From contig CACYZM010000017.1 in NCBI GenBank assembly GCA_902778855.1, forward strand, positions 1-64,000: 64,000 nucleotides of DNA, written 5' to 3'. The notes beneath the pieces were generated by a model. The model did not search any database. It was not told the DNA's origin and saw only the letters and a program-made list of their open reading frames with translations. Below are positions 10,654-26,280 of the stretch, piece by piece; positions within the stretch are counted from its first letter, which is position 1; the number at the start of each line of letters is the position of its first letter. A program made the position numbers and the translations under genes. This stretch comes from an uncultured Bacteroidia bacterium (lineage in GTDB: Bacteria; Bacteroidota; Bacteroidia; Bacteroidales; UBA932).

Positions 10654-12087
10654 TTACTGATCCAGTATTTCTCTTGCCAGAGAATTCACTGCACCTGCAT
10701 CCATAGGTTCTATAATGAATTCTTCCGGTTCCAAATCCAGCAGAAACTGCATATAGGAAGGAAGAGTCAGCAGTTGACCTTCCCGGCCAACATTATAGTC
10801 ACCGAATTTGATGATCTGCTTTACTCCATATTTGTCCGGATGCTTTAAAACTGTCTGAGCGCTTTTCGCCTGAGAGGTCCTCGCTTTGACTTCTAGTGGC
10901 ACACATTCGCCTTTCATGCGGACAAGAAAGTCCAGTTCAAGCCCGGAGTCTTTTTGGAAGTAGTATAAGTTCTGACGTTTCTTGTGAAGCGTATCGGCCA
11001 TGAGGTTCTCAAAGATGGCGCCTTTGAATCCTCCAAGATTGCCCTGCAGGATGTCTGCACGTATTCCCGGGCCAAGCATCTCGATAAGGAGTCCGATGTC
11101 TGCCGTATAGACCTTGAAAACATTGTCCTTTGCGTTTCCTTCCATCGGGAGGCCCGTGATGTCAGTATTATAGCAACGGCAGATAATCCCGGCATCTTGC
11201 AGCCACTGGAGAGATCCGGCAAAAGCTTCTCCACGTCCACCTGGTTTGATCTTACTATATTGGAATTTTTTATTCTCCTTGGCTAGTTGTTTGGGGATGG
11301 AGTTGAAACACTCCCGTATGTGAGGTTTGTCCTTATCCGGAGCATACTTGATCATATCATCGCGGTACTCCTTCAAAATGGCCTGATATTCTTCGCTTAC
11401 AGCATTCATATTGTTGGTGGCCAGGAAAGCATTGACAGGAGCGGGAAGACCGCCTATAGCAACATAGAGATTCAAGTAATTCTTCATGGCCACATGTATC
11501 CCGGCCGGGACCGGCGTCTCTTCTTTATAAAATTTCCGGAGAGCCTCAATGACTTCCGGGTTCACCCCGTTTGCCCAAAGAAACTCTTCGAAATCCAGCG
11601 GATACATCTCGACAATCTCTTCACTTCCAACGGGGACAGAGTTTATTCCTAAATCTTCTTTGCGGACCAACTTACGGCACCTTCTCCTTAGTTCGTCACC
11701 GTAGCCTTGAACTCCCAGCAGTGAACCGGTGGCAATTACATCAAAACGTCCATCCTCCTTAAAGAACTTGAGCGACGTTCTTGCCTCCGGACATTCCTGG
11801 ATTTCATCGAAGATAAGACAGGTTTCTCCTGGGATAAACTTGACACCTTGAATCTGGGCGGAAAGATTGAGCAGAATCTTATCCACGTCCTTCGAACCGA
11901 CAAACGCGTTAATGCGTTCCGGTTCTTTGATGAAGTTCATATAAACGACACTCTTGTAGTTCTCTGCAGCGAAATGTTGTGCGATGAAAGTCTTTCCGCA
12001 CTGGCGGACGCCCATTATCACCAAGGGCTTGTGTCCCGTTTTGTTTTTCCACTTGGTCAGGGTGTCTTCAATCTTCCTTTTCAGCAT
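10654..12087 (-). CDS. AAA_14 ATPase with C-terminal DUF4143 domain
   Basis: 477 aa from the ATG at 12087. Walker A is GVRQCGKT at about 26-33, Walker B is TCLIFDEIQEC, and a sensor-like ATGS follows. The C-terminal DUF4143 part has a nuclease-like ELDFLV...PLEVKA pattern. These ATPases occur in many copies in Bacteroidales genomes and their role is unclear. I chose 12087 because a -7 box (minus TATATTTG, 12110-12117) lies 23 bp upstream. The frame stays open to 12252, but that extension merely reads a 33-bp repeat array as 11-residue repeats. It is followed after 22 bp by the STAND nuclease gene, so the two may share a transcript. Confidence 0.9.
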   Translation of the reverse strand: MLKRKIEDTLTKWKNKTGHKPLVIMGVRQCGKTFIAQHFAAENYKSVVYMNFIKEPERINAFVGSKDVDKILLNLSAQIQGVKFIPGETCLIFDEIQECPEARTSLKFFKEDGRFDVIATGSLLGVQGYGDELRRRCRKLVRKEDLGINSVPVGSEEIVEMYPLDFEEFLWANGVNPEVIEALRKFYKEETPVPAGIHVAMKNYLNLYVAIGGLPAPVNAFLATNNMNAVSEEYQAILKEYRDDMIKYAPDKDKPHIRECFNSIPKQLAKENKKFQYSKIKPGGRGEAFAGSLQWLQDAGIICRCYNTDITGLPMEGNAKDNVFKVYTADIGLLIEMLGPGIRADILQGNLGGFKGAIFENLMADTLHKKRQNLYYFQKDSGLELDFLVRMKGECVPLEVKARTSQAKSAQTVLKHPDKYGVKQIIKFGDYNVGREGQLLTLPSYMQFLLDLEPEEFIIEPMDAGAVNSLAREILDQ

Positions 12088-12109
12088 ATTATGACGTATT
12101 ATCTGGCAA

Positions 12110-12117
12110 CAAATATA
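12110..12117 (-). promoter_or_regulatory. -7 box of the AAA_14 gene
   Basis: The minus strand reads TATATTTG (TAnnTTTG). A possible -33 TTG lies about 22 bp upstream, and repeat unit 1 of the 33-bp array falls between the two boxes. Confidence 0.55.
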
Positions 12118-12234
12118 CATTTTTCCAACGACTATTTTGCAATCTGTCGCATTTTTTCCAACGACTTTTGAATATTTCGTCGTAATTTTTCCAACGACTT
12201 TTGGGCGCTCCGACGCATTTTTTGGAACGAGTTT
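12118..12234. repeat. Four-unit 33-bp tandem repeat array on the AAA_14 promoter
   Basis: The core on the minus strand is AAAAGTCGTTGGAAAAA. The CCAACGAC core on the plus strand starts at 12125, 12158 and 12191. A changed fourth copy (GGAACGAG) starts at 12224. All spacings are exactly 33 bp, about three helical turns, so cores would sit on nearly the same DNA face. Sequence between cores is not conserved, which favours protein-binding sites over a simple satellite. Confidence 0.85.
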
Positions 12235-12281
12235 ACTAATTACCGGATTCATCGCGGATAAATCCGGACCGACCCCACCCC

Positions 12282-13290: not shown

Positions 13291-14082
13291 TCATAAATCC
13301 CTGTTAAGCACTTCGCTGACCTCCCGCGTTTCCGGCAGTGCTTGCCAGCTGCTCATCAGTTCACAGACCACCACTCCCTCCGTATTCGTAAGCATATGGA
13401 GATACCTTCCATCATCCAGGCGCGACATGCGGCACGTCAGCGTTTCATCGAGATAGGTCTCGTGCAGCCAGTGAACGGTCACTGACGTCAATGACTGCGA
13501 GGAAAGCACTTCATCGGGCATGGTCAGCAGGGCAATGCTGACATAGCTGCGGTTGCTGACGTGGAAATTGAAGTCAAGGTCAAGCCGGGTGGCCCGATGC
13601 TCCATCTGCATGTCAACCCCCTGCGCTTTCGGGAACCGTATTTTCTTATGACTGCCCGTCATCAGTTCGGGCACCACCGTCAGCTTGCCGGCAAGGAACT
13701 CGGTTGTTTCCAGCCGCTTGGTGTCGAGATTGAGAATGTTCCACTGACTTGTGCCGGATGCGATCAGTTGCCCGTTATCTTTTCGGACAATGCGGAAGTC
13801 GCAGTAGATGCGCAGTGATGTCAACTCACTCACCCAAAGCTCGACGGTAAACTCCTCCGACCAGAATGTGACCGCAGGCTGAATGTCCAACTGAACCTCC
13901 GTGATGACCCACATCCTGTGCTGCTTGACGATGTCGAACGCCGCGAAATGATGGACAGTCATCATCCGCGCAAAACTGTCCTGAAAATACATCAACAAGG
14001 CATTGGGAGTAACCCTGTACAAGGGCGTGATGTCCGAGGCCGTTGATGTGTACGTATGCCTGTATTTTCCTTTTTCGTACAT
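13291..14082 (-). CDS. Acyl-ACP thioesterase (FatA/FatB-type)
   Basis: 263 aa, the usual length of bacterial acyl-ACP thioesterases. It hydrolyses acyl-acyl carrier protein to release free fatty acid in the cytoplasm. The sequence suggests two hot-dog domains: the N-terminal one (TPNALLMYFQDSFARMM ... WVITEVQLDIQP ... SLRIYCDFRI) and the C-terminal one beginning near LDLDFNFHVSNRSYVSIAL. W-x(n)-N-x-D appears as WNILNLDTKRL, as in the family. The start is supported by a -7 box at 14102-14109. It stands alone, divergent from mntA-hepT. Confidence 0.88.
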   Translation of the reverse strand: MYEKGKYRHTYTSTASDITPLYRVTPNALLMYFQDSFARMMTVHHFAAFDIVKQHRMWVITEVQLDIQPAVTFWSEEFTVELWVSELTSLRIYCDFRIVRKDNGQLIASGTSQWNILNLDTKRLETTEFLAGKLTVVPELMTGSHKKIRFPKAQGVDMQMEHRATRLDLDFNFHVSNRSYVSIALLTMPDEVLSSQSLTSVTVHWLHETYLDETLTCRMSRLDDGRYLHMLTNTEGVVVCELMSSWQALPETREVSEVLNRDL

Positions 14083-14101
14083 TTTTCCCGATTAATCAGC
14101 A

Positions 14102-14109
14102 CAAAGATA
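14102..14109 (-). promoter_or_regulatory. -7 box of the acyl-ACP thioesterase gene
   Basis: The minus strand reads TATCTTTG, 19 bp before the start codon. Confidence 0.6.
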
Positions 14110-14119
14110 CGAATAATCT

Positions 14120-14147
14120 GGAAGCCCTACTTCCCGACAGGGCTTCC
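14120..14147. repeat. Minimal hairpin matching the outer ends of element A
   Basis: GGAAGCCCT (14120-14128) pairs with AGGGCTTCC (14139-14147) around a 10-nt loop. The left half matches the first 11 bases of element A at 15362. The right half matches the last bases of that element (TTCCCGACAGGGCTTTCC) apart from one missing T. It looks like an empty or collapsed A site. Confidence 0.65.
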
Positions 14148-14156
14148 CCCGATTCA

Positions 14157-14185
14157 TTTGGCAATTTATTTGAAATATTGCCAAA
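14157..14185. promoter_or_regulatory. Putative operator of mntA-hepT
   Basis: Perfect inverted repeat TTTGGCAAT (14157-14165) and ATTGCCAAA (14177-14185) with an 11-bp spacer, ending 6 bp before the -7 box TATCTTTG (14192-14199). It covers the -33 region, as expected for an autoregulatory toxin-antitoxin operator. Confidence 0.55.
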
Positions 14186-14191
14186 ATAATA

Positions 14192-14199
14192 TATCTTTG
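14192..14199 (+). promoter_or_regulatory. -7 box of mntA-hepT
   Basis: TATCTTTG, 17 bp before the ATG at 14217, so the leader is very short. Confidence 0.65.
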
Positions 14200-14216
14200 C
14201 ACAGAAAGCTGACGCA

Positions 14217-14987
14217 ATGGATTATAAGAGCCATATATCGCCAATCATGCGGGCTGTCTCGGAGGTTTTGATGGATTCCTTCGTGGGAATGGATCATTGC
14301 ATTACCGACACACGTAAGAATATCATCGTAGAAGTTCCCAAAGGAATGTGCGACGATGTCCGTACTGTGCTGAAGCGCCATTTCCCGGATGTGGCCCTCA
14401 TCCGTAATGCCTACCCCATGATGGAAGACCTGCACGATTTCATCCTGGTCAAGCCCCTCATTTCAGAATCGCCGGTCTTTGAAGACAACGGCGTGTCCGT
14501 CCCGGAATTGGAGAAACTGCTGGTAGACCGCGATTCCGACAAGGAATACGCCTCCCTGGGCGACGCCGAAATCCAAAAAGAGTTCCAGCGCGCATTCGAA
14601 CTGTATCCCGTCAACAAGTCCCGCCTTCTCCGCTATGCCGGCAGAAAAGGGAAAAAAGAAGAAATCCAAAACCGCCTGGCACGGGTCGACACCCAACGCG
14701 TCGCAACCATCCATTCCATCCAGGACTATTTCCGCCAAGCGCCCGTACTGCGAGCCTGGATCTTCGGCTCCTTCTCCCGAATGGAAGAAAAGCCCAACAG
14801 CGACATCGACATCCTGATCGACCTCGACCCATCCGTCTCCTTGGGCCTCTTGCAATATGCCGCCATGATCAACCGCCTGGAAGACCTCCTCGGACGCAAA
14901 GTCGACCTCGTAGCCACCGGCACCGTCAAACCCTTCGCCCAACAAACCATCAACCGCGATAAAGTCCTGATCTATGAGAGACCCTGA
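14217..14987 (+). CDS. mntA: MntA-type nucleotidyltransferase antitoxin with N-terminal extension
   Basis: 256 aa. The C-terminal third is a minimal nucleotidyltransferase: GSF at 184-186, then SDID with D196 and D198, and a third acidic position in KVDLV. In studied MntA/HepT pairs this enzyme AMPylates the HepT toxin on a tyrosine and so silences it. The first 170 residues or so are extra compared with the usual MntA of about 100-140 aa and are not recognised. Its stop overlaps the hepT start by 14 bp, so translation is probably coupled. A palindrome covers its promoter. Confidence 0.85.
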   Translation: MDYKSHISPIMRAVSEVLMDSFVGMDHCITDTRKNIIVEVPKGMCDDVRTVLKRHFPDVALIRNAYPMMEDLHDFILVKPLISESPVFEDNGVSVPELEKLLVDRDSDKEYASLGDAEIQKEFQRAFELYPVNKSRLLRYAGRKGKKEEIQNRLARVDTQRVATIHSIQDYFRQAPVLRAWIFGSFSRMEEKPNSDIDILIDLDPSVSLGLLQYAAMINRLEDLLGRKVDLVATGTVKPFAQQTINRDKVLIYERP

Positions 14988-15327
14988 CCGCGATTATGGA
15001 CGTCTTCGAGACATCATCCAGGCTGCCGACCACATAGCTGCGTTTACCGAAGGATACTCCCAGGAACAACTCATGGCCGATAAGCTACGGTATTTCGCCG
15101 TCGTCAAAAATGTCGAAATCATCGGAGAAGCTGCCTTTATGCTATCTCTCGAATTCAAAGAAAAGCATAGCCAGATGCCTTGGAACGACATTATCCGAAT
15201 GCGCCACGTATTAGTCCACGGCTACGCCACCATCCTCCCGGAACTACTTTGGCAAACCGCCCTTGTGGACGTTCCAATCCTAAAGAAACAAGTGGAAGCC
15301 ATCGTCAATTCCCTGCCCAACAATTAG
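14974..15327 (+). CDS. hepT: HepT-like HEPN ribonuclease toxin
   Basis: 117 aa, typical HepT length. It has a four-helix HEPN fold with the catalytic/target motif RX4HXY as R77-HVLV-H82-G-Y84. Other family marks are FAVVKNVEIIGEAA (helix 2) and MPWNDIIRMRHVLVHGY. In the known system, R and H cleave RNA and the tyrosine is AMPylated by the neighbouring MntA. The 14-bp overlap with mntA and the intact motifs argue for a working toxin-antitoxin pair. Confidence 0.9.
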   Translation: MRDPDRDYGRLRDIIQAADHIAAFTEGYSQEQLMADKLRYFAVVKNVEIIGEAAFMLSLEFKEKHSQMPWNDIIRMRHVLVHGYATILPELLWQTALVDVPILKKQVEAIVNSLPNN

Positions 15328-15361
15328 ACTGAAAAGGAATCAGGCACCTACTGATGACTCC

Positions 15362-15630
15362 GGAAGCCCTACGGAGGGAAGGAACAATTCCGGAGCGAAT
15401 TGGCGAAAAAGGGACGTGCGTGGGCCCGTGCAGGGAGCGGTGGCCGTAGAAAGCGGGCCGCAGGGCTCAGTCCCTGCGGCCCGCTCGAGGCCATGACGGC
15501 GTTCTGTTTGACGACCGTTAGACTCGCTTTAGCGAGGCTAAAAGGGAGAAGTTCGCCGTCAAGCTCCCGATGCCGCTCCCTTTTTCGCCATCCTGAGCGG
15601 AGGAATTGTTCCTTCCCGACAGGGCTTTCC
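15362..15630. repeat. Palindromic element A, copy 1
   Basis: 269 bp with nested inverted repeats. Ends: GGAAGCCCT / AGGGCTTTCC. Perfect 16-bp arms at 15376-15391 and 15602-15617 (GGGAAGGAACAATTCC). Perfect 14-bp arms at 15401-15414 and 15577-15590 (TGGCGAAAAAGGGA). 7-bp arms at 15495-15501 and 15554-15560. Two internal hairpins: 15453-15484 (13-bp stem) and 15518-15541. A second copy is at 25617-25880. The internal stems differ in sequence between copies but still pair. It starts 34 bp after hepT. No convincing gene lies inside. Confidence 0.85.
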
Positions 15631-15646
15631 CAAAAGATACGGCAAA

Positions 15647-15790
15647 CCGAAAATCACAGAGCGCCTAAATCGACGAAATAGTGCAGGAGACGGCTATCGC
15701 CGCGCTCCGTGCGGCCATTTGGCCTCGCGGCGCGCGGGAATGGGCCAACGAGGGCCCAGGAAAGGGGCCACCGCGCTCCGTGAATATCGG
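15647..15790. repeat. Palindromic element B, copy 1
   Basis: 144 bp. Left end CCGAAAATCACAGAGCGC (15647-15664); right end is its near-complement (15773-15790). An internal GCGCTCCGTG and a GGCC-ATTT-GGCC hairpin are conserved in all three copies (also 19043-19187 and 25896-26040). It follows element A by 16 bp, as copy 3 does by 15 bp. Confidence 0.85.
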
Positions 15791-15878
15791 GTTGCGACAA
15801 AATTGCCCGGCGGAGAATGATGCGGCTAATAAACCGCAAATTTTGCGGCTAAATAGCTGCAAACAGACCGAAAAACAT

Positions 15879-15886
15879 TATCTTTG
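15879..15886 (+). promoter_or_regulatory. -7 box of the Fic gene
   Basis: TATCTTTG. It overlaps an upstream ATG at 15884, which therefore cannot be the start; the ATG at 15902 fits. Confidence 0.65.
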
Positions 15887-15901
15887 CGAAAAAGACACGT
15901 A

Positions 15902-17032
15902 ATGAAGTATATCTACGACACCCCACAATGGCCGCATTTTTCTTGGGACCACGAGCAGGTTTCCGATGCATTGGCCCGGGTCAATAAGGAGGCGGGCTTC
16001 CTGGCAGGCAGGCTCAGTGCAATCGGTTTGGATGCACGGATGGGGGCGGTCGTTGAGACCGTCACCCACGATATTGTGTCTTCTTCCGAAATAGAGGGGG
16101 TTGTTTTGAACACCGACGAAGTGCGTTCTTCAGTGGCCCGTCGTCTTGGGGTTGACATCCCGCAGAGCAGGGACTCTTCCCGGTACATCGACGGTATCGT
16201 GGACATGATGTTGGATGCCACGGTCCATTACAAGGAGCCACTTACCCACGGCCGCCTATTTGCGTGGCACAACACGTTATTCCCGAACGGGCGCAGCGGA
16301 TTGGCGGTCATCGATGTAGCCAAGTACCGCTCAGGAGAAATGAGTGTCGTTTCCGGTATGCTCGGGAAGGAAAAGGTCCATTATGTCGCACCGTCTCCGG
16401 ACAGGATAGAGAAAGAGATGGACGTTTTCCTGGATTGGTTCAATGCGGAGAGTACGCCCAAGACGTATCTCAAATCAGCCATCTCGCATCTATGGTTCGT
16501 CTGCATCCACCCCTTTGACGATGGGAACGGACGCATCGGCAGGGCCATTGCCGACATGTCGCTTTCGCAGTCCGACGACAGCCAGATGCGGTTTTTCAGC
16601 ATGTCCCGGCAGATCAATGCCGACAAGAAATCCTATTACGAAATCCTGGAACATACCCAGAAACAGGACGGAAACATAACCGCATGGTTGTTATGGTATC
16701 TGGACTGTATGTCCAGGGCCATTCACGCCTCCGACGAACTCCTTTCCCGTGTTCTTTGCAAAGCGGTTTTCTGGCAGACACATGCAGGCATTCCGTTCTC
16801 AGATCGGGAGCTGCAGGTCTTGAATGTCTATCTGGATGGTTATGAAGGCAAGTTGACCGCTAAGAATTGGGCAAAACTTTCAAAAGTATCTTTGGACACC
16901 GCGGCAAGAGACATCAAGCATTTGGTTGAGGCCGGAATTCTCATTCCCCAGCCGGGAAGGTTGCGCGACGTGTCCTATGGTATTCGTTGCGCAAAGGATT
17001 CGATGGTGATCCCCGGGCCGAAACAGTCTTGA
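15902..17032 (+). CDS. Fic family protein (putative AMP transferase)
   Basis: 376 aa. It has the full Fic motif HPFDDGNGRIGR starting near residue 203, so the catalytic histidine and phosphate-binding loop are intact. Fic enzymes usually transfer AMP from ATP to a protein hydroxyl. An N-terminal inhibitory motif (S/T)xxxE(G/N) is present as SSEIEG near 61-66, which places it among self-inhibited class II Fic proteins. The N terminus resembles DUF4172, and the C terminus looks like a winged helix (LTAKNWAKLSKVSLDTAARDIKHLVEAGIL). The start is set by the promoter at 15879-15886. It may act alone; no antitoxin gene is next to it. Confidence 0.92.
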   Translation: MKYIYDTPQWPHFSWDHEQVSDALARVNKEAGFLAGRLSAIGLDARMGAVVETVTHDIVSSSEIEGVVLNTDEVRSSVARRLGVDIPQSRDSSRYIDGIVDMMLDATVHYKEPLTHGRLFAWHNTLFPNGRSGLAVIDVAKYRSGEMSVVSGMLGKEKVHYVAPSPDRIEKEMDVFLDWFNAESTPKTYLKSAISHLWFVCIHPFDDGNGRIGRAIADMSLSQSDDSQMRFFSMSRQINADKKSYYEILEHTQKQDGNITAWLLWYLDCMSRAIHASDELLSRVLCKAVFWQTHAGIPFSDRELQVLNVYLDGYEGKLTAKNWAKLSKVSLDTAARDIKHLVEAGILIPQPGRLRDVSYGIRCAKDSMVIPGPKQS

Positions 17033-17084
17033 TCGCATACGGCTGCAAGCCTTGCACCCATTTGCGCCCCCGCCCCCGCCCCCA

Positions 17085-17092
17085 TATCTTTG
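17085..17092 (+). promoter_or_regulatory. -7 box of the vWA gene
   Basis: TATCTTTG, 26 bp before the ATG at 17119, preceded by a C/G-only stretch at 17065-17083. Confidence 0.6.
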
Positions 17093-17118
17093 CGATGTAA
17101 TTCTAAAAACATCGCGCC

Positions 17119-17757
17119 ATGAACATCTACAATGTGATCATTCTGGACGAGAGCGGGAGCATGTCGTCCATCTACAAGGAAACGCTGCAGAGCATCAACG
17201 AGGTGCTGGGCGGGATTCGGAAGAATCAGGAGGAGCACCCCGAGCAGCGGCACAATGCAACCCTAGTGACCTTCGAGGGCAATGGCATCAGCGGCGTCAA
17301 GACGCGGCGCGACCGCGTGCCCATCGAGAAGATCGACAATCTCACGGAGAAAGACTACCGCCCGGGCGGCTGCACCCCGCTTTACGATGCGATGGGCCAG
17401 ACGCTCAACCGCCTGGAAGGCCTGGTGGCGGAAGGCGACAAAGTGATGGCCACGATCATTACCGACGGATATGAGAATGCCTCGGAAGAGTACTCCGGCA
17501 AGACCGTCAAGGCACTCGTCTCGCGACTGCGCGAGAAGGGCTGGGTATTCGCCTACATCGGCGCCAACCAGGACGCGGTGGAAGTGGCGCGCGACCTGAA
17601 TATCGCCAACGCCCTGAACTACGACGCCACGCCGGAAGGGATGGTATCGATGCGCTTCAGCTTCAAGAAGGCGAACCGCAAGATGGCCGAATTCGTGGCC
17701 CGCTGCGCAGAACCCGAAATGTACGAGACGCTGTTCGAAGACGATGACAAGGCGTAG
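17119..17757 (+). CDS. von Willebrand factor A domain protein
   Basis: 212 aa, almost entirely one vWA domain with a complete metal-ion-dependent adhesion site: DESGSM near 10-15, T in GGCTPLYDAMG, and D in TDGYENAS. It has no signal peptide, so it is cytoplasmic. It is clearly related to the N-terminal half of the vWA-macro protein at 36027-37079: both share LDESGSM, TPLYDAMG, TDGYENAS and GWVF-YIGANQD. The last 40 residues are helical and end acidic (EDDDKA). Function unknown; cytoplasmic vWA proteins often bind partner proteins. Confidence 0.85.
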   Translation: MNIYNVIILDESGSMSSIYKETLQSINEVLGGIRKNQEEHPEQRHNATLVTFEGNGISGVKTRRDRVPIEKIDNLTEKDYRPGGCTPLYDAMGQTLNRLEGLVAEGDKVMATIITDGYENASEEYSGKTVKALVSRLREKGWVFAYIGANQDAVEVARDLNIANALNYDATPEGMVSMRFSFKKANRKMAEFVARCAEPEMYETLFEDDDKA

Positions 17758-17786
17758 CAATACTTGTCATTGACGGCCGAATTCGT

Positions 17787-17794
17787 TACATTTG
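17787..17794 (+). promoter_or_regulatory. -7 box of the 405-aa gene
   Basis: TACATTTG (TAnnTTTG), 9 bp before the ATG at 17804. TTG triplets around 17764-17772 could serve as the -33 box. Confidence 0.5.
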
Positions 17795-17803
17795 TAGTTA
17801 CTT

Positions 17804-19021
17804 ATGCGAAACGAAGAAGACCGTCCGATCCACCTTCCCGTCCCCTTCCTGAAGGAAGGCACAGTCCTTTTTGTCAGCCCCGACGCCGCGGACGCGGCCA
17901 CGCCCATGCCCCCGTCCGCGGATGCTGACGCGGACGCATCCGCGTCCGCGCCCGCGCCCGGCCGGCGGCCCGACAGGAAGGGCTGTCTGTCATTGACCGA
18001 CCTCGCCGCTTCGCTCTCCCCCGAGCTCCGCGCCTACTTCTTCCCGGGCGTCGAGGCCGACCTGTCGGCTGCTGCACTGTACCAGCGCCTACAGGAGCTC
18101 GCCGGCCTCGGCGACTCAGCCAACGCCGCCGCTGATGGCCTCGGCGGCCAGCCCGGCCTCCTCTACCGGCGGGACGGCACACTCTACTTCCACCCGCTGC
18201 CCGAGGGCATACGGCCCGACGCCGAGGCCGCGGGCGCGGCCGCTCTGCCGAGCCGCCCGCCGCAGTCCGAGCCCGCACTTTCGGGCCGCCCGCCTCGCTC
18301 CGTGGCCGAGAAATCCCGGCTCCGCGGCTTCCGCCGCAGCCGGGCCCCGCGAATCGAAGCGATGCCCTGCGAAGAGCCGCTAATCGACGAGGAATCGATT
18401 CTTTTTTCGGATACTGAGGAGAACGAGCGCAACCAGGTCGCGGCGCCGCAGGAGGCCCTCGGGAAAGAAGCCCCGGAGGCCGCTCGAGAGACAGCCCGGG
18501 AAACGGCCCGGGAGGAGGCGCAGGATCCCCGCGTCCAGGCCATCCTCGATGCCTGGGAAAAGATCGAACGCGAGTTCGGCATAACGATAGAAGACCTTCA
18601 GGTACTCCTCGGTTATCAGGTGAAACTCAGCCGCTTGAGCATCACCACGTCCAACCGGATTTTCCTAACCGACTTCGACAATCGCGAAGTCAAAATGGAC
18701 GACCTCACCAAAGCCCTCTACTTCTTCTTCCTCCGCCACCCGGAAGGCGCCCGCCTCAAGGAACTCCAGGACCACGAACCCGAAATCCTCCGCATCTACT
18801 CCGGCATCACCGGCCGCGACGACCCCGCCAAAATCCGCGAAAGCGTCCACAACCTCCTCGACCCCTTCGCCAACAACCTCAACGTCTCCCTCTCCCGCAT
18901 CAAAAAAGCCTTCCGCGACGTCGTCGGCGACCGCATCGCCCGCTTCTACTACATCTCCGGCTCCCCCGCCCAACCCCGCACCCTCCCCCTCGACCGCGAC
19001 CTCGTCCTCTGGGCCCATTGA
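17804..19021 (+). CDS. Hypothetical protein with conserved C-terminal domain
   Basis: 405 aa. The middle (about 30-55 and 140-240) is low-complexity Ala/Asp/Ser/Pro/Arg sequence that looks like a flexible linker. The last 150 residues look globular and conserved: KLSRLSITTSNRIFLTDFD, then LTKALYFFFLRHPEGARLKEL, IYSGITGRDDPAKI and RFYYISG. I have seen similar tails in other Bacteroidota proteins of unknown role, but this is from memory only. No signal peptide or catalytic motif is evident. Element B copy 2 starts 21 bp after its stop. Confidence 0.75.
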   Translation: MRNEEDRPIHLPVPFLKEGTVLFVSPDAADAATPMPPSADADADASASAPAPGRRPDRKGCLSLTDLAASLSPELRAYFFPGVEADLSAAALYQRLQELAGLGDSANAAADGLGGQPGLLYRRDGTLYFHPLPEGIRPDAEAAGAAALPSRPPQSEPALSGRPPRSVAEKSRLRGFRRSRAPRIEAMPCEEPLIDEESILFSDTEENERNQVAAPQEALGKEAPEAARETARETAREEAQDPRVQAILDAWEKIEREFGITIEDLQVLLGYQVKLSRLSITTSNRIFLTDFDNREVKMDDLTKALYFFFLRHPEGARLKELQDHEPEILRIYSGITGRDDPAKIRESVHNLLDPFANNLNVSLSRIKKAFRDVVGDRIARFYYISGSPAQPRTLPLDRDLVLWAH

Positions 19022-19042
19022 ATCCCGGACGAAACCCACAAG

Positions 19043-19187
19043 CCGAAAATCGCGGAGCGCAGGAATCGATGAAATATGCGTACAGACAGCTATCACCGCG
19101 CTCCGTGAGGCCATTTGGCCTCGCAGAGCGCAAGAATGGGCCGAAGAGAGGCCCAGGAAAGGGGCCGCCGCGCTCCGTGATTATCGG
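19043..19187. repeat. Palindromic element B, copy 2 (solo)
   Basis: 145 bp. CCGAAAATCGCGGAGCGC (19043-19060) pairs with GCGCTCCGTGATTATCGG (19170-19187). The internal GCGCTCCGTG and GGCC-ATTT-GGCC hairpin match copies 1 and 3. No element A lies next to this copy. Confidence 0.85.
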
Positions 19188-19208
19188 GTTGCGTCAAACA
19201 CGCCCACC

Positions 19209-19343
19209 TCACAACACATCCATCAGCAACCACCCCTGCCAATACCGCAACTACCCGGAAGACAGAAACAACAGCGCGCCGATGATGACAACACCCAGCA
19301 GAAACTTGCTGATTGCCTGAATGAAGAGATGATTCTTTACCAT
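19209..19343 (-). pseudogene. Remnant of an isoprenylcysteine methyltransferase-like gene
   Basis: From the ATG at 19343 the minus strand reads MVKNHLFIQAISKFLLGVV and continues as a membrane helix to a TAG at 19251-19253. The same frame then goes on as LRYWQGWLLMDVL before a second stop. The helix followed by YWxGWLL is how many ICMT-family membrane methyltransferases begin; a full gene would run about 150-200 residues. Only the N terminus, with one internal stop, is left. This is one of several gene remnants in 19-25 kb. Confidence 0.6.
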
Positions 19344-19353
19344 AAACACCCCG

Positions 19354-20091: not shown

Positions 20092-20097
20092 AGACAA

Positions 20098-20128
20098 CGA
20101 AGATACGAAAAAACATTCGCATCTTACT
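20098..20128 (-). promoter_or_regulatory. 31-bp promoter module, copy 1 (divergent member)
   Basis: Minus -7 box TATCTTCG (20098-20105). The block aligns without gaps to the modules at 20350, 21403, 22827 and 24078, but its middle and -33 part are changed. It drives the DUF1349 lipoprotein gene. Confidence 0.5.
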
Positions 20129-20327
20129 CCTTGTCTTTCTTCAATTGCTTGATCCCTCCCGAAAGGATAAGCACAGCGGCCGCAAATGAGACGGCAAAGA
20201 AGATCCAGCGTTTCAATTCATGAATGCCCGCTACAATAAGCTTGATGAGCAGGATGCAACTGGCAATAATGAGGAGGACGGAGACGACAATCATCACGAT
20301 CGTTTGCGTTCTTTTCTTCTTTTCCAT
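20124..20327 (-). CDS. Small two-helix membrane protein
   Basis: 67 aa. It has two hydrophobic segments, about 9-33 (IVMIVVSVLLIIASCILLIKLIV) and 40-58 (WIFFAVSFAAAVLILSGG), with lysine-rich ends (MEKKKR, KQLKKDKE), so both termini are probably cytoplasmic. It is not recognised and has no motif for a function. Its promoter module is at 20350-20380, and the DUF1349 lipoprotein gene follows on the same strand after 32 bp. Confidence 0.7.
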   Translation of the reverse strand: MEKKKRTQTIVMIVVSVLLIIASCILLIKLIVAGIHELKRWIFFAVSFAAAVLILSGGIKQLKKDKE

Positions 20328-20349
20328 ACCAATACCGATTTTATTGTCA

Positions 20350-20380
20350 CGAAGTTACGAATAACCCGCCGCATCTGCAA
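20350..20380 (-). promoter_or_regulatory. 31-bp promoter module, copy 2
   Basis: Minus -7 box TAACTTCG (20350-20357) and -33 TTGC (ending 20380), with GATGCGGCGGGTTATTCG between them. The same intervening sequence recurs in copies 3-5. It drives the 67-aa membrane protein gene. Confidence 0.65.
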
Positions 20381-20439
20381 GCGGGTTTGAATCATGGCGG
20401 GAATTCACTATTTTTACATACTAATAAATGTCAATTCCT

Positions 20440-20640
20440 ATGAACCGACCGAAATTCCTACGCTTTCTGTTAGGCCTTTCCATCGTACTGACCGTGATCT
20501 TTCTCATCGGGATCATTGTGGACGACAGTAGCAACAATCTGCTCGGCCGAATCGGACTCTGGTGCGGCTTTATTTCACAGCTACTGCTGGCTGTGACTAT
20601 GTTTCTGGAGATTCGAAGGGAAAAGAAAAAGCAGGATTAG
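20440..20640 (+). CDS. Small two-helix membrane protein
   Basis: 66 aa from the ATG at 20440; an in-frame ATG lies 12 bp upstream. Two membrane segments: FLLGLSIVLTVIFLIGIIV and IGLWCGFISQLLLAVTMFLEI, ending in RREKKKQD. I chose 20440 because a damaged copy at 22893-23010 has only that ATG. Family unknown. It is followed by the large hairpin element C, which separates it from the convergent GNAT gene. Confidence 0.65.
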   Translation: MNRPKFLRFLLGLSIVLTVIFLIGIIVDDSSNNLLGRIGLWCGFISQLLLAVTMFLEIRREKKKQD

Positions 20641-20678
20641 CCGCCATGGCGCTTGCCGCGATATCCCAGCCTCATCAT

Positions 20679-20804
20679 CTTTTGACGCGACAGGATCGGA
20701 GAGGCGGTATTTAGTCCTGTGGTGGCGGCTTTTTGGGCGAAATCGCCCAAATCTCCGCCACCACAGGACCGTCACAGCCTCCCGGAATCCTGTCGCGTCA
20801 AAAG
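20679..20804. repeat. Palindromic element C (126-bp nested hairpin)
   Basis: Three nested perfect inverted repeats: CTTTTGACGCGACAGGAT (20679-20696 with 20787-20804), GTCCTGTGGTGGCGG (20714-20728 with 20755-20769) and TTGGGCGA (20733-20740 with 20743-20750). It lies between convergent genes and may end transcription from both sides, but it is far larger than a normal terminator. Confidence 0.85.
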
Positions 20805-20828
20805 TCCGCCCCCGAAGAGCCTCTCTTG

Positions 20829-21386
20829 TCAGTTGATTTCTTTCCGAAAAACGAACATCTCGTCGTCTGCGCTCCAGTTGCCTTCCTCGGCTTCCGGAAC
20901 GGCCGGACCGTGGTGATACTTGTTCCAGAATTCGACGATATGGAACCCGCAGCGGTTCACGTAGAAATGGATGTTGCGCTTTTCGAAATACGGGGTGATG
21001 GTTTCCCATACCCTGATCTCCGGATGCATCGCTTCCACCGCTCTCCAAGCCGCCTGGCCGATACCCTTGCTGTGGATTTCCGGTAACACGAACAACAACT
21101 CCAGTTCGCCCTTGGCCGCCCCCGCGTCGATGCGAAGGACAACGCCGCCGACTTTATTCCCATCAAGAACGATTCGATATGTCTCGGCATTCTCCCCATC
21201 GATGGACTCCTCGATGGTCTTGCGGGAAATGACTTCCTCCCCTTCCTCGCAACGCTCATCCCGCATCCCAAACTCCTGCTGGGCCCCATACTTGAACGCC
21301 CACTGATTATCAAGGATAAACTGTTCCCGGTCATCGGGTTGTAAAGGAAGGAGTATGACTTCCGGTAATTTCATAGATGCCGACAT
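20829..21386 (-). CDS. GNAT family N-acetyltransferase
   Basis: 185 aa. The acetyl-CoA-binding motif A is visible as LELLFVLPEIHSKGIGQAAW, with the Q/RxxGxG/A-like SKGIGQ, followed by motif B as YFEKRNIHFYVNRCGFHIVEFWN. The N terminus (ILLPLQPDDREQFILDNQWAFKYG) resembles GNATs of unknown substrate. It transfers an acetyl group from acetyl-CoA to an amine; the target cannot be told. Promoter module copy 3 lies 16 bp upstream. Confidence 0.88.
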   Translation of the reverse strand: MSASMKLPEVILLPLQPDDREQFILDNQWAFKYGAQQEFGMRDERCEEGEEVISRKTIEESIDGENAETYRIVLDGNKVGGVVLRIDAGAAKGELELLFVLPEIHSKGIGQAAWRAVEAMHPEIRVWETITPYFEKRNIHFYVNRCGFHIVEFWNKYHHGPAVPEAEEGNWSADDEMFVFRKEIN

Positions 21387-21402
21387 ATCTCGATTGACGG
21401 CC

Positions 21403-21433
21403 CAAAGTTACAAAGAACCCGCCGCATCTGCAA
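21403..21433 (-). promoter_or_regulatory. 31-bp promoter module, copy 3
   Basis: Minus -7 box TAACTTTG (21403-21410) and -33 TTG (ending 21433) with GATGCGGCGGGTT between, as in copies 2, 4 and 5. It drives the GNAT gene. Confidence 0.65.
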
Positions 21434-21461
21434 AACAGTCCTTCCTGTCCAATCACTGCCT

Positions 21462-21572
21462 TTACTTCAGATTCGACCTGAAGAAGTCCTCCATCTTGTC
21501 GTACGGGACGACGCCGGCCTCACGCCGACCGAGTTCCTGGGATAGCCATTCGATCAATTGAGCCCCCGGGCG
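21462..21572 (-). pseudogene. C-terminal remnant of an unidentified gene
   Basis: The minus strand between a TGA at 21573-21575 and a TAA at 21462-21464 encodes about 36 residues with a natural composition (AQLIEWLSQELGRR, then VVPYDKMEDFFRSNLK). It has no start codon in a suitable place. It begins 6 bp after the stop of the alpha/beta-hydrolase gene. I read it as the tail of a lost gene; the family is not recognised. Confidence 0.45.
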
Positions 21573-21578
21573 TCAAAT

Positions 21579-22316
21579 CTAACTGTCAATGGCTATCAAT
21601 CTTTTCGCCACCTCTTCCGGGTGGTCGATCAGAAACTGTCCGTGATTCATTCCGGGGAACACCGCAACGTGCGTATCGGGGTGGAGAGAGCATAAATGCT
21701 TGGCCTGCGGTTTGGCGACGAAGGCCTCTTTGGTTCCGTACCAGAAGTGGATATCGGCCCCGTGAATGGATTCCAATTTATGAGTATAGACATCTTTGTA
21801 TCCATCGCGTACGGCTTTTCCTTTGCCGTAAGGCCACACTTTTCGACATTCATCCAGCAGCACGTCGAAGTAATGGGAATGGAACACCCATCGCCAGAAA
21901 CCAGTCCAGTGGTAGCAGGTCCAGACATTCAGACTCTGATAGTAGCGCAGCGGATCCACACTCCATTTGGGAAGCGGCAACAGCGGTGCGGCGTCCATAA
22001 TAGCGTGGTCGATGACAATCTCGTTCCTCTCCATGATGCGGGAGAGAATTTTCCCGCCGAGCGACAGCCCGTAGGCGACGTCCAAGTGGCCGCCCATGTT
22101 TCCCTGAACATATCTAATGATCTGCCCGGCCTGGTCGTCAACCGAAGTAAAGGATGATTCCTTCCCAAGCAGGAAACCATCAATCCCGGCCGCAACAATA
22201 TGGAAGCGGTCTTTCAAAATGTCGATGAGCGGCAGGAATATCTCGTACGATACCCCCAGCCCGGGAATCAGGAGCAAACTAGGATTCCCTTCGTCTCCGT
22301 ACGTGTTGAATGTCAT
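21579..22316 (-). CDS. Alpha/beta hydrolase
   Basis: 245 aa. The oxyanion region is LLLIPGLGVSYEIF near 15-28. The nucleophile elbow is GLSLGG (serine in GxSxG), and a late histidine lies in GMNHGQF. These complete a likely Ser-His-Asp triad. There is no signal peptide, so it is cytoplasmic. The substrate is unknown. Its start overlaps the stop of the upstream methyltransferase-like gene by 4 bp (ATGA), so the two are translationally coupled and driven from promoter module copy 4. Confidence 0.85.
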   Translation of the reverse strand: MTFNTYGDEGNPSLLLIPGLGVSYEIFLPLIDILKDRFHIVAAGIDGFLLGKESSFTSVDDQAGQIIRYVQGNMGGHLDVAYGLSLGGKILSRIMERNEIVIDHAIMDAAPLLPLPKWSVDPLRYYQSLNVWTCYHWTGFWRWVFHSHYFDVLLDECRKVWPYGKGKAVRDGYKDVYTHKLESIHGADIHFWYGTKEAFVAKPQAKHLCSLHPDTHVAVFPGMNHGQFLIDHPEEVAKRLIAIDS

Positions 22317-22798
22317 TTCCTTAAAGTGATAAACCGCCCCGTGCGTTTCTTGTATTCCAGATACTCATCGCCGAAATCGGCCTCGAGACGCTTCTCTTCC
22401 GAACGGACCTGCAGCGACATCAACCCGGCCACGACGGCAAAAACCAGTAGCGTCCACCCGCTCCAAAGCGCAACGACAATGCCGGCATAATACAGATAGG
22501 TCCCCGACAGCATCGGATTCCTAGACAGCTTATACGGCCCGTCCGTCATCAGATGTTTGGTCCTTGGCGCCACCTCGTGTCCCATCGCATCAAAAGGGTT
22601 GCCCTTCCCCACGCGCTTCATATACACGATACTCCACACGCTGAGCGTAAGCCCTGCCAATGCAATGAGCGCCGATATCCACAGACGCCCCGTCGGAATA
22701 TCCGCAAAGCCCGGCCTCCCGGCAACCAGCCACATCAACGTCGGAATCCCGACAATGAAAATGGCAAAACCCAGAAAAAAACCCAGAACCTGTTTCAC
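22313..22798 (-). CDS. Isoprenylcysteine methyltransferase-like membrane protein
   Basis: 161 aa with about four hydrophobic segments. The C-terminal half has the phospholipid/isoprenylcysteine methyltransferase pattern: LMTDGPYKLSRNPMLSGTYL, then EEKRLEADFGDEYLEYKKRTGRF. Proteins of this group are membrane enzymes that use S-adenosylmethionine; bacterial substrates are mostly unknown. It is the first gene of a pair with the alpha/beta hydrolase (4-bp overlap). Promoter module copy 4 is at 22827-22857. Confidence 0.85.
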   Translation of the reverse strand: MKQVLGFFLGFAIFIVGIPTLMWLVAGRPGFADIPTGRLWISALIALAGLTLSVWSIVYMKRVGKGNPFDAMGHEVAPRTKHLMTDGPYKLSRNPMLSGTYLYYAGIVVALWSGWTLLVFAVVAGLMSLQVRSEEKRLEADFGDEYLEYKKRTGRFITLRK

Positions 22799-22826
22799 GG
22801 CATCTATAAACTACGATTTATCGATA

Positions 22827-22857
22827 CGAAGTTACGAAGATCCCGCCGCATATGCAA
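22827..22857 (-). promoter_or_regulatory. 31-bp promoter module, copy 4
   Basis: Minus -7 box TAACTTCG (22827-22834) and -33 TTGC (ending 22857); the middle GCGGCGGGATCTTCG is nearly identical to copy 2. It drives the methyltransferase-like/hydrolase pair. Confidence 0.65.
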
Positions 22858-22892
22858 GCGGGTTTGAATTATGGCGGGAATTCACTTTTTTT

Positions 22893-23056
22893 ACATACTA
22901 TGAACCGACCGAAATCCCTACGCATTTTATTTGTGGACGGCAGAAGCAACAATTTGCTCGGCCGAATCGGCCTGTGGTGCGGCTTTATCTCACAGTTTCT
23001 GCTGGCTGTAACTATTCCGCATCCGGCAGCTGCCCGTCGTGTGCCTTCCAGGCACA
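22893..23056 (+). pseudogene. Damaged copy of the 20440 membrane-protein gene fused to a lipoprotein gene tail
   Basis: 22852-23010 is a close copy of the region around 20380-20605, including the upstream sequence. It has lost 17 bp of leader and about 60 bp of the first membrane helix, so it reads MNRPKSLRILFVDGRSNN and goes on. At 23012 it joins a 45-bp copy (two mismatches) of the 3' end of the DUF1349 lipoprotein gene, in the opposite sense. The join falls at a shared CTATT/ACTAT. It looks like the scar of an old tandem duplication. Confidence 0.75.
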
Positions 23057-23060
23057 CAAA

Positions 23061-24002
23061 TTATTGCTTAAATAGCCAATCCCTGACTGCGGCAATCTTA
23101 TAACCATAGTCGAACGAGGCCATGTGCTCCATTCCACGGCCTGTTTCAGGCAGCACGCTGCCAGTCTCCCATTTGATAAAGTTGATGTCGCCGCCCCGGG
23201 CAATCAATTCTTCTGCCAGTCGCTCCTGCTCTTGATCGGGAAGCTTGGCACTCCAAGAGGCGGTTTCGATGCGGGCATTATGCGCCTCCAGCACATTGGT
23301 CAGGTCTTGCATGCCGCCATAGGCTTTCTGGTCGCCACCGGCTACGATATAGAAAAACGTCTTGGTGCCAAAGTCCTGCATCTTCGAAGTGTCCCACTGG
23401 CTGCTGACGAACAGTGAGGCGGCAAAAAGGTCGGGATGGGTGATGTTGAAATAGAACGACATCATGCCTCCCATCGACTGCCCGGTGGTATACAGGTGTT
23501 TGGTGTCTACATTGTATTCCTTGCAGACGGATTCCAGCAGGCGGATTGTCATTTCCACCTCATCGGTGGTGCTCCAATCATCCTGTACGGCCCAATCCGT
23601 GTATTGGGGAACCAGCACGAACGATGGATGCAACTGCTGGTCCCGGTCTGAGGCAAACTCCAGTGCACCGTAACCCTGCGTAAGCGGAGCCGTCACTTCC
23701 TTACCCACGGTGCTGGCATCAGCCATAAACAGCACCAAGGGGAGTTTCTCGCCATCCTTGATACCGCTGGGAACGAACAGGTTGTATTCCATCGTCTTGC
23801 CCGTCTGCGTGTCGTTGAACGTCAATTGCTTGAACTTTCCCAGCGTCTCTTGCTTCAATGCCACGAAAACACTGTCAGAATCTTTGTTGATCACCATATG
23901 GCCACCCTGGCGAGGACCACGTTCACCGCCCTTTTTCTGGTTCTGGGCACAGGCTGTCAGGCACAACACTCCGACCGCCCAAAAAAACAATACTTTCTTC
24001 AT
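23061..24002 (-). CDS. Esterase-like lipoprotein (alpha/beta hydrolase)
   Basis: 313 aa. It has a signal peptide with a lipobox ending LTAC. The mature protein is an alpha/beta hydrolase of the PHB-depolymerase/feruloyl-esterase kind: EYNLFVPSGIKDGEKLPLVLFM, then the nucleophile elbow GQSMGG in TGQSMGGMMSFYF, an acid in AGGDQKAYGG, and a late histidine in GRGMEHMASFDYG. It is probably a surface or periplasmic esterase acting on plant or other polymer esters; that substrate is inferred. Promoter copy 5 lies about 76 bp upstream. Confidence 0.85.
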   Translation of the reverse strand: MKKVLFFWAVGVLCLTACAQNQKKGGERGPRQGGHMVINKDSDSVFVALKQETLGKFKQLTFNDTQTGKTMEYNLFVPSGIKDGEKLPLVLFMADASTVGKEVTAPLTQGYGALEFASDRDQQLHPSFVLVPQYTDWAVQDDWSTTDEVEMTIRLLESVCKEYNVDTKHLYTTGQSMGGMMSFYFNITHPDLFAASLFVSSQWDTSKMQDFGTKTFFYIVAGGDQKAYGGMQDLTNVLEAHNARIETASWSAKLPDQEQERLAEELIARGGDINFIKWETGSVLPETGRGMEHMASFDYGYKIAAVRDWLFKQ

Positions 24003-24077
24003 TTTTCTATGGAGTGTTTCGAGTCGAAGCTCTGGTCTCTGCCAAGACCTTTCAAATGAATGATTATGATTTAATAA

Positions 24078-24108
24078 CGAAGATACGAATAATCCGCCGC
24101 ATCTGCAA
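24078..24108 (-). promoter_or_regulatory. 31-bp promoter module, copy 5
   Basis: Minus -7 box TATCTTCG (24078-24085) and -33 TTGC (ending 24108), with GATGCGGCGGATTATTCG between. It drives the esterase-like lipoprotein gene. Confidence 0.65.
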
Positions 24109-24151
24109 ACAGGAAAGAACCTATCGACCGATTAAGACCGACAACCCGTTC

Positions 24152-25616: not shown

Positions 25617-25880
25617 GGAAGCCCAAGGCGGGAAGGAACAATTCCGGAGCGAATTGGCGAAAAAGGGACGTGGGAGGGCCTGTGCAGGGAGCGGTGGCCG
25701 TAGAAGAAGGGGCCGCAGGGTTTCCTGCGGGCCCTTTCGAGGCCATGACGGCGCTTTGTTCGACGAACGTTCCGGGCCCTTGCGGCCCGGATAAGGAGGA
25801 GTTCGCCGTCAAGCGACCGGTGCCGCTCCCTTTTTCGCCAGCCTGAGCGGAGGAATTGTTCCTTCCCGCCAGGGCTTGCC
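25617..25880. repeat. Palindromic element A, copy 2
   Basis: 264 bp. Same arms as copy 1: GGGAAGGAACAATTCC at 25630-25645 with 25852-25867, and TGGCGAAAAAGGGA at 25655-25668 with 25827-25840. The two internal hairpins (25705-25739 and 25771-25791) have stems different from copy 1 but still complementary. Conserved single-stranded blocks include GTGCAGGGAGCGGTGGCCGT and GAGGCCATGACGGCG. Confidence 0.85.
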
Positions 25881-25895
25881 CATAGTGAAGGCAAA

Positions 25896-26040
25896 CCGAA
25901 AATCACAGAGCGCAGAAATCGATGGAATAGGCCGAGAAATGGCTATTGCTGCGCTCCGTGCGGCCATTTAGCCTCGCAGCGTGCGGGAATGGGCCAGCGA
26001 GAGGTTAAGAAATGGGAAGACCGCGCTCCGTGATTTTCGG
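25896..26040. repeat. Palindromic element B, copy 3
   Basis: 145 bp. CCGAAAATCACAGAGCGC (25896-25913) pairs with GCGCTCCGTGATTTTCGG (26023-26040), one mismatch in 18. It sits 15 bp after element A copy 2, the same order, orientation and spacing as at 15362-15790. Confidence 0.85.
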
Positions 26041-26280
26041 GTACGTCAGAGAGGCTGCCAGCTGACTTTGCTACGGTTGGTTGACAGCTGGAAAGTGTCA
26101 AATGGGCTCTTCCGCGGGCAAGGTCTCATTTGAGGCCCGACACCTTGCCCGACCGAATGGCATCCTACGGCTGTCTGGGGCAGATTGCCCGGGCAAGGTC
26201 TGCCATCTCAAATGAGACCTTGCCCATTTTGCCCCAGGACTTACCCCGTTTTGCCCCAGAACTTACCCCATTCCACTCCA
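26041..26280. repeat. Hairpin-rich intergenic segment E
   Basis: Perfect 19-bp inverted repeat GGGCAAGGTCTCATTTGAG (26116-26134 with 26207-26225). Extra copies of the GGGCAAGGT motif lie inside (26139-26149 reversed, 26191-26199). CCAGCTG/CAGCTGG pair at 26058-26064 and 26085-26091. TTTTGCCCCAG-ACTTACCCC is repeated twice in tandem (about 22-bp period, 26227-26271). No gene was found here. Confidence 0.75.

What the first reader, a model, noticed from the sequence alone, without database searches (positions are those of the whole stretch)
15362..15790. Composite A+B palindromic element, conserved in order and spacing at two loci
A (about 265 bp) and B (about 145 bp) occur together at 15362-15790 and 25617-26040, same orientation, 15-16 bp apart with the linker ending GGCAAA. 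Within A, the arms are identical while two inner stems differ in sequence but remain paired (for example GCGGGCCGCAGGG against GGGGCCGCAGG). Such compensatory change points to selection on structure: a non-coding RNA or a hairpin recognised by a transposase. Both loci follow toxin-like genes (hepT; a PBECR-type relic).
Basis: seen in the sequence. Interest (0 to 1): 0.8.

Follow-up and report, generated by a model that had tools for sequence, protein, structure and literature searches.

The report
Order-wide family of folded intergenic repeats
The two matching palindromes are copies of a dispersed repeat that belongs to a previously uncatalogued family of folding, non-coding sequences found in scattered Bacteroidales; its unpaired loops stay the same across bacterial families while its stems change in matched pairs, so evolution is preserving a folded single strand, and the copies mark places where neighbouring genes, here toxin-like ones, have been exchanged.

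Summary
Confirmed and extended. A (15362-15627) and B (15646-15792) recur at 25617-25877 and 25895-26042, same orientation, 17-18 bp apart. The genome holds 14-15 A and about 9 B copies; five lie side by side. A is the local form of a much wider family: a 70-nt core (outer helix, asymmetric internal loop CGAMCGTTA...AAAAGGNAGNAGTT, apical hairpin) occurs in 21 of 40 genus genomes and in other Bacteroidales families. An exact-pattern scan of 84,980 species found 83 stretches, all with Bacteroidales-type record names. Core stems covary strongly (alignment-free 508 of 670 pairs versus 321 +/- 11 shuffled) while loops stay fixed; G-U exceeds A-C, favouring folding of the + strand. No Rfam family, ORF or linked transposase was found. 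Y1 transposases co-occur but carry their own repeats; reverse transcriptases show no association. Against sister genome G018, A and B coincide with rearrangement junctions: in G000 an A remnant (14120-14147) and MntA-HepT separate A+B from the flank it adjoins in G018. Best reading: a non-autonomous, structure-conserved mobile repeat, analogous to bcr1 or ERIC but order-wide. Transcription, mobilising enzyme and target duplication are unproven. The toxin association is local, not general.

The parts
15362..15627 (+). element A, copy 1 (long imperfect palindrome, ends GGAAGCCC ... GGGCTT)
15453..15484 (+). first inner stem-loop of A copy 1 (GCGGGCCGCAGGG/CCCTGCGGCCCGC)
15494..15564 (+). family core of copy 1: outer helix GACGGC/GCCGTC, conserved internal loop, covarying apical hairpin
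   Evidence: CM matches; pair counts
15646..15792 (+). element B, copy 1 (ends ACCGAAAATC ... ATCGGGT)
19039..19197 (+). B alone; with 15646-15792 it brackets the Fic-VWA-ORF segment as direct repeats
25617..25877 (+). element A, copy 2
25746..25814 (+). family core of copy 2 (hairpin replaced: CCGGGCCC/GGCCCGG)
25895..26042 (+). element B, copy 2
14120..14147 (+). A remnant: first 11 and last 17 nt of A joined (GGAAGCCCTAC|TTCCCGACAGGGCTTCC) at the site where G018 has a full A
14148..15361 (+). segment with MNT-type nucleotidyltransferase (14217-14987) and HepT (14974-15327), absent between flank and A in G018
15800..19038 (+). segment with Fic (DUF4172-Fic), VWA protein and an ORF of no known family, bracketed by B; no counterpart after B on the G018 contig

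Best explanation
A is a member of a Bacteroidales family of structure-conserved, protein-free intergenic repeats. SHOWN: multi-copy and dispersed; core of conserved internal loop plus covarying helices across several families; lineage-specific stems and near-identical copies inside one genome; presence/absence between sister species; no ORF. INFERRED: the + strand acts as a folded single strand (RNA more likely than ssDNA) recognised by a trans-acting factor that copies or moves the element; this explains why loops are fixed while even the terminal arms change in matched pairs. INFERRED from one locus: after insertion the palindrome tends to lose its interior (remnants at 14120-14147 and on contig C30) and its copies act as homology or break points that exchange neighbouring genes. 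B is a second palindrome, seen only in this species and its sister (one weak partial match elsewhere), which travels with or joins A at a fixed distance, giving a BIME/BOX-like mosaic.
For: 14-15 A and about 9 B copies in G000. Core in 21 of 40 genus genomes, up to 14 copies; 9-15 copies in G217, G386, Rikenellaceae MAGs and Ca. Cryptobacteroides onthequi. 83 stretches, all Bacteroidales-type titles, in the whole GTDB collection; 0 in IMG/VR. Covariation: 92.8% pairs versus 72.1% shuffled, score 0.354 versus 0.092, every slid register at most 0.060; alignment-free hairpin 508/670 versus mean 321, maximum 358 of 1000 shuffles; type I outer arms also covary. Wobble asymmetry G-T:A-C 30:2 core, 16:4 type I, 19:5 anchored. 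Turnover: G018 intergenic regions lack A or hold a 35-nt remnant; G034 lacks copies present in G004 at orthologous genes, with a common element end GGATCACCGCC. Breakpoint coincidence with G018. Orientation to genes 27 convergent, 29 tandem, 15 divergent: no fixed cis position.
Against: No mobilising enzyme, autonomous relative or target duplication was found. Empty sites differ in neighbouring sequence, so insertion was not separated cleanly from deletion. Covariation in a DNA palindrome can also come from hairpin-templated mutation. The wobble bias is absent in the P4 helix (4:6) and weak in own-genome A copies (22:12, with 6:7 in the outer arms). No transcript data. The pair alignment was fitted to the model structure. 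Only one locus shows the gene exchange.
Confidence: 0.6

Rival explanations
1. A stand-alone structured regulatory RNA (sRNA or ribozyme-like) whose gene has simply been duplicated; dispersal is a by-product and the RNA has a host function.
For: Invariant internal loops across families with covarying stems and, in AT-rich members, a shared 3' part: GCGG, about 8 nt, then a UUUUUGGUUACUUUUU/AAAAAGUAAC-type hairpin. Low copy number (1-2) in free-living genomes such as Ancylomarina and Puteibacter.
Against: Absent from 19 of 40 genomes of the same genus and nearly all of a class-wide sample; no conserved neighbour gene seen, no consistent orientation; 10-15 copies in several genomes.
Confidence: 0.2
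2. REP/TIR-type repeats mobilised as ssDNA by Y1 (RAYT/TIRYT) tyrosine transposases.
For: Y1_Tnp genes in 19 of 21 element-bearing and 8 of 19 element-free genus genomes.
Against: The Y1 genes whose flanks were read carry their own unrelated long inverted repeats; one exception (G024:C148) has an element 370 bp away. No GTAG/CGTC end. Association is confounded by phylogeny.
Confidence: 0.12
3. Palindromes that act only as bidirectional terminators or mRNA 3' stabilisers in cis, spread by recombination.
For: Mild excess between convergent genes (27 of 71); very stable hairpins.
Against: Does not explain invariant internal loops or a 70-nt core kept across families; also found upstream of promoters, for example at the thioesterase gene.
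Confidence: 0.05
4. Compensatory changes come from hairpin-templated (quasi-palindrome) mutation, without selection on structure.
For: Outer arms of own-genome A copies show no wobble bias (6:7); interior deletions show cruciform-type instability.
Against: Would perfect whole palindromes, not keep an asymmetric unpaired loop constant across families; G-U excess in the core.
Confidence: 0.03

Closest known systems
bcr1 of the Bacillus cereus group
   Same: about 150-bp dispersed intergenic repeat with a conserved structure, no ORF (listed as Bcr1, structured, in PMC2267715)
   Different: to my knowledge confined to one species group; this family spans Bacteroidales families with only the core kept
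ERIC / YPAL / Nemis (Correia) elements
   Same: intergenic palindromes of 100-170 bp that can fold in transcripts (PMC2267715)
   Different: ERIC is described there as one long stem-loop; A has an internal loop and inner hairpins that covary
BIME / BOX mosaics
   Same: modules (A, B, a third palindrome) joined at fixed spacing in several combinations
   Different: modules are larger and A has relatives in other families
REP-RAYT / TIR-TIRYT systems (PMC3733652)
   Same: palindromic repeats co-occurring with Y1 transposase genes
   Different: Y1 genes are flanked by other repeats; no GTAG or CGTC tag
Porphyromonas gingivalis MITEs (PMC4596501)
   Same: non-autonomous repeats in a Bacteroidales species
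   Different: sequences were not compared here; that element is described as containing a minisatellite

Membership tests
MITE | short non-coding element with terminal inverted repeats in many copies | tested here: met
   ends GGAAGCCC/GGGCTT in G000 copies
MITE | target-site duplication | tested here: inconclusive
   no duplication visible beside G000 copies; orthologous sites too diverged
MITE | ends shared with an autonomous transposon | tested here: not met
   every copy of the G004 element end lay beside the core; no gene-bearing copy met
REP/RAYT | 20-40 nt hairpin tagged GTAG or CGTC | tested here: not met
   A is 265 nt with other ends
REP/RAYT | Y1 transposase gene flanked by the same repeat | tested here: not met
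   (one non-adjacent exception)
Integron attC | cassette array in which the site separates same-strand genes | tested here: not met
   ordinary gene order with mixed strands around copies; integrase not searched
Any Rfam 15 family | match at gathering score | tested here: not met
Retroelement RNA / retron | associated reverse transcriptase | tested here: not met
   RVT_1 in 6 of 21 carriers and 6 of 19 non-carriers
Structured RNA | covarying helices with conserved loops | tested here: met
Structured RNA | transcribed | not testable with these tools
   no expression data
BIME/BOX mosaic | distinct modules joined in recurrent combinations | tested here: met
   A-B in five places of G000 and in G018, A with another palindrome in C10 and C21

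The most novel reading that the evidence does not exclude
An undescribed class of structured RNA, old within Bacteroidales, that spreads as a selfish or dual-use mobile RNA: its fixed internal loops are the binding site for a trans-acting factor that copies it, its stems drift freely in matched pairs, and its copies then serve as portable homology that shuffles toxin and defence genes.
Probability: 0.3. Interest if true: 0.8.

Novelty: new variant of a known kind. Interest (0 to 1): 0.6.

Why it matters
Known structured bacterial repeats (bcr1, ERIC, Nemis) are usually discussed within a genus or species group. A family whose core structure is traceable across families of an order, while sequence and copy number turn over within a genus, points to an RNA-level (or ssDNA-level) recognition event that has persisted and has no known enzyme. 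It gives a ready covariance model for Bacteroidales annotation, a concrete target for RNA-seq and pull-down, and an explanation for some gene-exchange junctions next to toxin-like genes in gut and rumen Bacteroidales.

Tried and rejected
Integron-like cassette arrays, suggested by 1.5-2 kb spacing of copies in G004/G034: the genes between are dnaJ, grpE, anmK and similar on mixed strands. Y1/RAYT transposase as mobiliser: statistical co-occurrence but other repeats beside the genes. Reverse transcriptase: no association. Autonomous element with the same end in G004/G034: none. Rfam at relaxed threshold: only chance-level matches far below gathering. Clean empty sites and target duplications: not resolved. 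A Shine-Dalgarno-like reading of the AAGGAGG in the 3' loop: variants GAGAAG, GAGCAG and GACGAG break it. One Pfam batch failed because guessed frames held stops and was not repeated. Literature searches for a described Bacteroidales family gave none in the held library.

Full report
WHAT IS THERE. The composite is real. A copy 1 spans 15362-15627 and B copy 1 15646-15792; A copy 2 25617-25877 and B copy 2 25895-26042; a B alone lies at 19039-19197. Linkers are 18 and 17 bp. Arms are 92-93% identical rather than identical. Predicted folding is far better than shuffled sequence for A (z -9.5) and better for B (z -4.1). The own genome (a 2.41 Mb draft in 79 contigs) holds 14-15 A copies and about 9 B copies on many contigs. 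A and B are adjacent in the same order at C17 (twice), C26 and C35, and with B on the other arm of A at C10:35344-35761; a further palindrome follows A at C10 and C21. So the A-B pairing is a recurrent module combination, as in BIME or BOX mosaics, and A also occurs without B.

A WIDER FAMILY. A blast of A against relatives found copies in 16 of 61 genomes, all in the genus. Reading them showed two shells around one core: the shell of A (type II) and a second shell (type I: GACGATTTGTGAGCGGCAGG ... CCTGCCGCGAACCATGAGGAGCAGCC). A covariance model of the 70-nt core, R1, matched 21 of 40 genus genomes and, in 393 Bacteroidales genomes, members of three further families. An exact pattern, CGAMCGTTAG-N(6-36)-CTAAAAGN(1-2)AGNAGTT, scanned on its reverse complement through 84,980 species, gave 83 stretches, whose record titles are all Bacteroidales, Bacteroidia or Rikenellaceae MAGs, Ca. 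Cryptobacteroides, Ancylomarina or Puteibacter; my rough estimate of the chance expectation is about one match. IMG/VR gave none. A broader model, R2, found 9-15 copies in several non-genus genomes and 1-2 in the free-living ones; a class-wide sample of 395 with strict filters found only the own genome, so the family is patchy. AT-rich members share a 3' part: GCGG, a short spacer, then a U-rich stretch and an ACUUUUU/AAAAAGU hairpin.

STRUCTURE IS UNDER SELECTION. On 73 distinct core sequences 92.8% of cells pair (72.1% shuffled), 14 of 16 pairs show changes on both sides, covariation score 0.354 (0.092 shuffled; at most 0.060 when the partner is slid). That alignment was fitted to the model, so I repeated the test without one: hairpins anchored by the flanking motifs pair at 508 of 670 positions, shuffled mean 321, maximum 358 in 1000. 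The outer arms of type I also covary. Loops on both sides of the hairpin stay nearly constant. On the + strand G-U exceeds A-C (30:2 core, 16:4 type I; 19:5 anchored hairpin), which favours folding of that strand; the P4 helix (4:6) and the outer arms of own-genome copies (6:7) show no bias, so recent arm changes may be DNA-level. Shuffles do not correct for relatedness; R-scape was not available.

MOBILITY AND NEIGHBOURS. Copies lie between ordinary genes without fixed orientation (27 convergent, 29 tandem, 15 divergent of 71; gene calls are longest ORFs and approximate). Against sister genome G018, the loci of the C10 copies lack A, and the C6 locus keeps a 35-nt end. Between G004 and G034, three G004 copies are absent beside the orthologous genes, and the G004 element ends each time at GGATCACCGCC. 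No target duplication was resolved. The mobilising enzyme is unknown: Y1 transposases co-occur (19/21 versus 8/19) but carry other repeats; reverse transcriptases do not associate; no gene-bearing version was met.

THE TOXIN GENES. In G018 contig C164 the order is thioesterase flank (97.8% identical to 13818-14130), A (99%), B (about 90%), a radical-SAM-type gene and others, then homologs of 19220-19344 (79%) and 21587-21958 (94%). In the window the thioesterase flank is followed by a 28-nt A remnant (14120-14147), then MntA-HepT, then A+B, then Fic-VWA-ORF, then B again. Two gene modules therefore sit exactly between copies or remnants of A and of B. The simplest account is recombination at the repeats; a different order of events cannot be excluded from two genomes. 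Pfam confirms MNT, HepT, Fic and a partial PBECR3. Elsewhere A copies adjoin ordinary genes, so toxin genes are not a general partner.

VERDICT. Not an Rfam family, not REP/RAYT by the tested features, formally MITE-like but without a demonstrated target duplication or parent transposon. It works most like bcr1 or ERIC, with a deeper conserved core. Names of families and of literature elements rest on PMC2267715 and PMC3733652 and otherwise on general knowledge.

Noticed in passing
window 26116-26225: Another palindromic cluster (GGGCAAGGTCTCATTTGAG and its inverse) next to A+B copy 2; in sister G018 a relative of it occupies the locus where G000 has A (L130).
   Followed up: partly
L004 480-620, L006 1775-1900, L131: A third palindrome with GGACGCTC/GAGCGTCC half-sites follows A at about 10-15 bp in two loci and a remnant of A in G018.
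   Followed up: no
window 12086-12234: Four copies of an AT-rich unit (TTTTTTCCAACGACTTT) spaced exactly 33 bp, inside the start of ORF 10654-12252, giving a peptide repeat around KVVGK.
   Followed up: no
L255-L274 (Y1 genes): Y1 transposase genes of about 305-340 aa flanked by their own long inverted repeats (for example CGTGTGCG...CGCACACG), like the TIRYT type.
   Followed up: partly
window 20097-24113: Five copies of a 37-nt leader-like repeat (ACGAAGTTACGAATAACCCGCCGCATCTGCAAGCGGG) upstream of genes; A in L007 and the C30 remnant follow a related stretch.
   Followed up: no
L163, L053, L052: Some type I copies carry an extra GC-rich insert of about 80 nt in the 3' strand of the lower stem.
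   Followed up: no
G000 contigs C10, C35, C43, C58; G004 contigs C8, C14, C16: Copies often lie at contig ends, so the copy number in drafts is probably underestimated.
   Followed up: no
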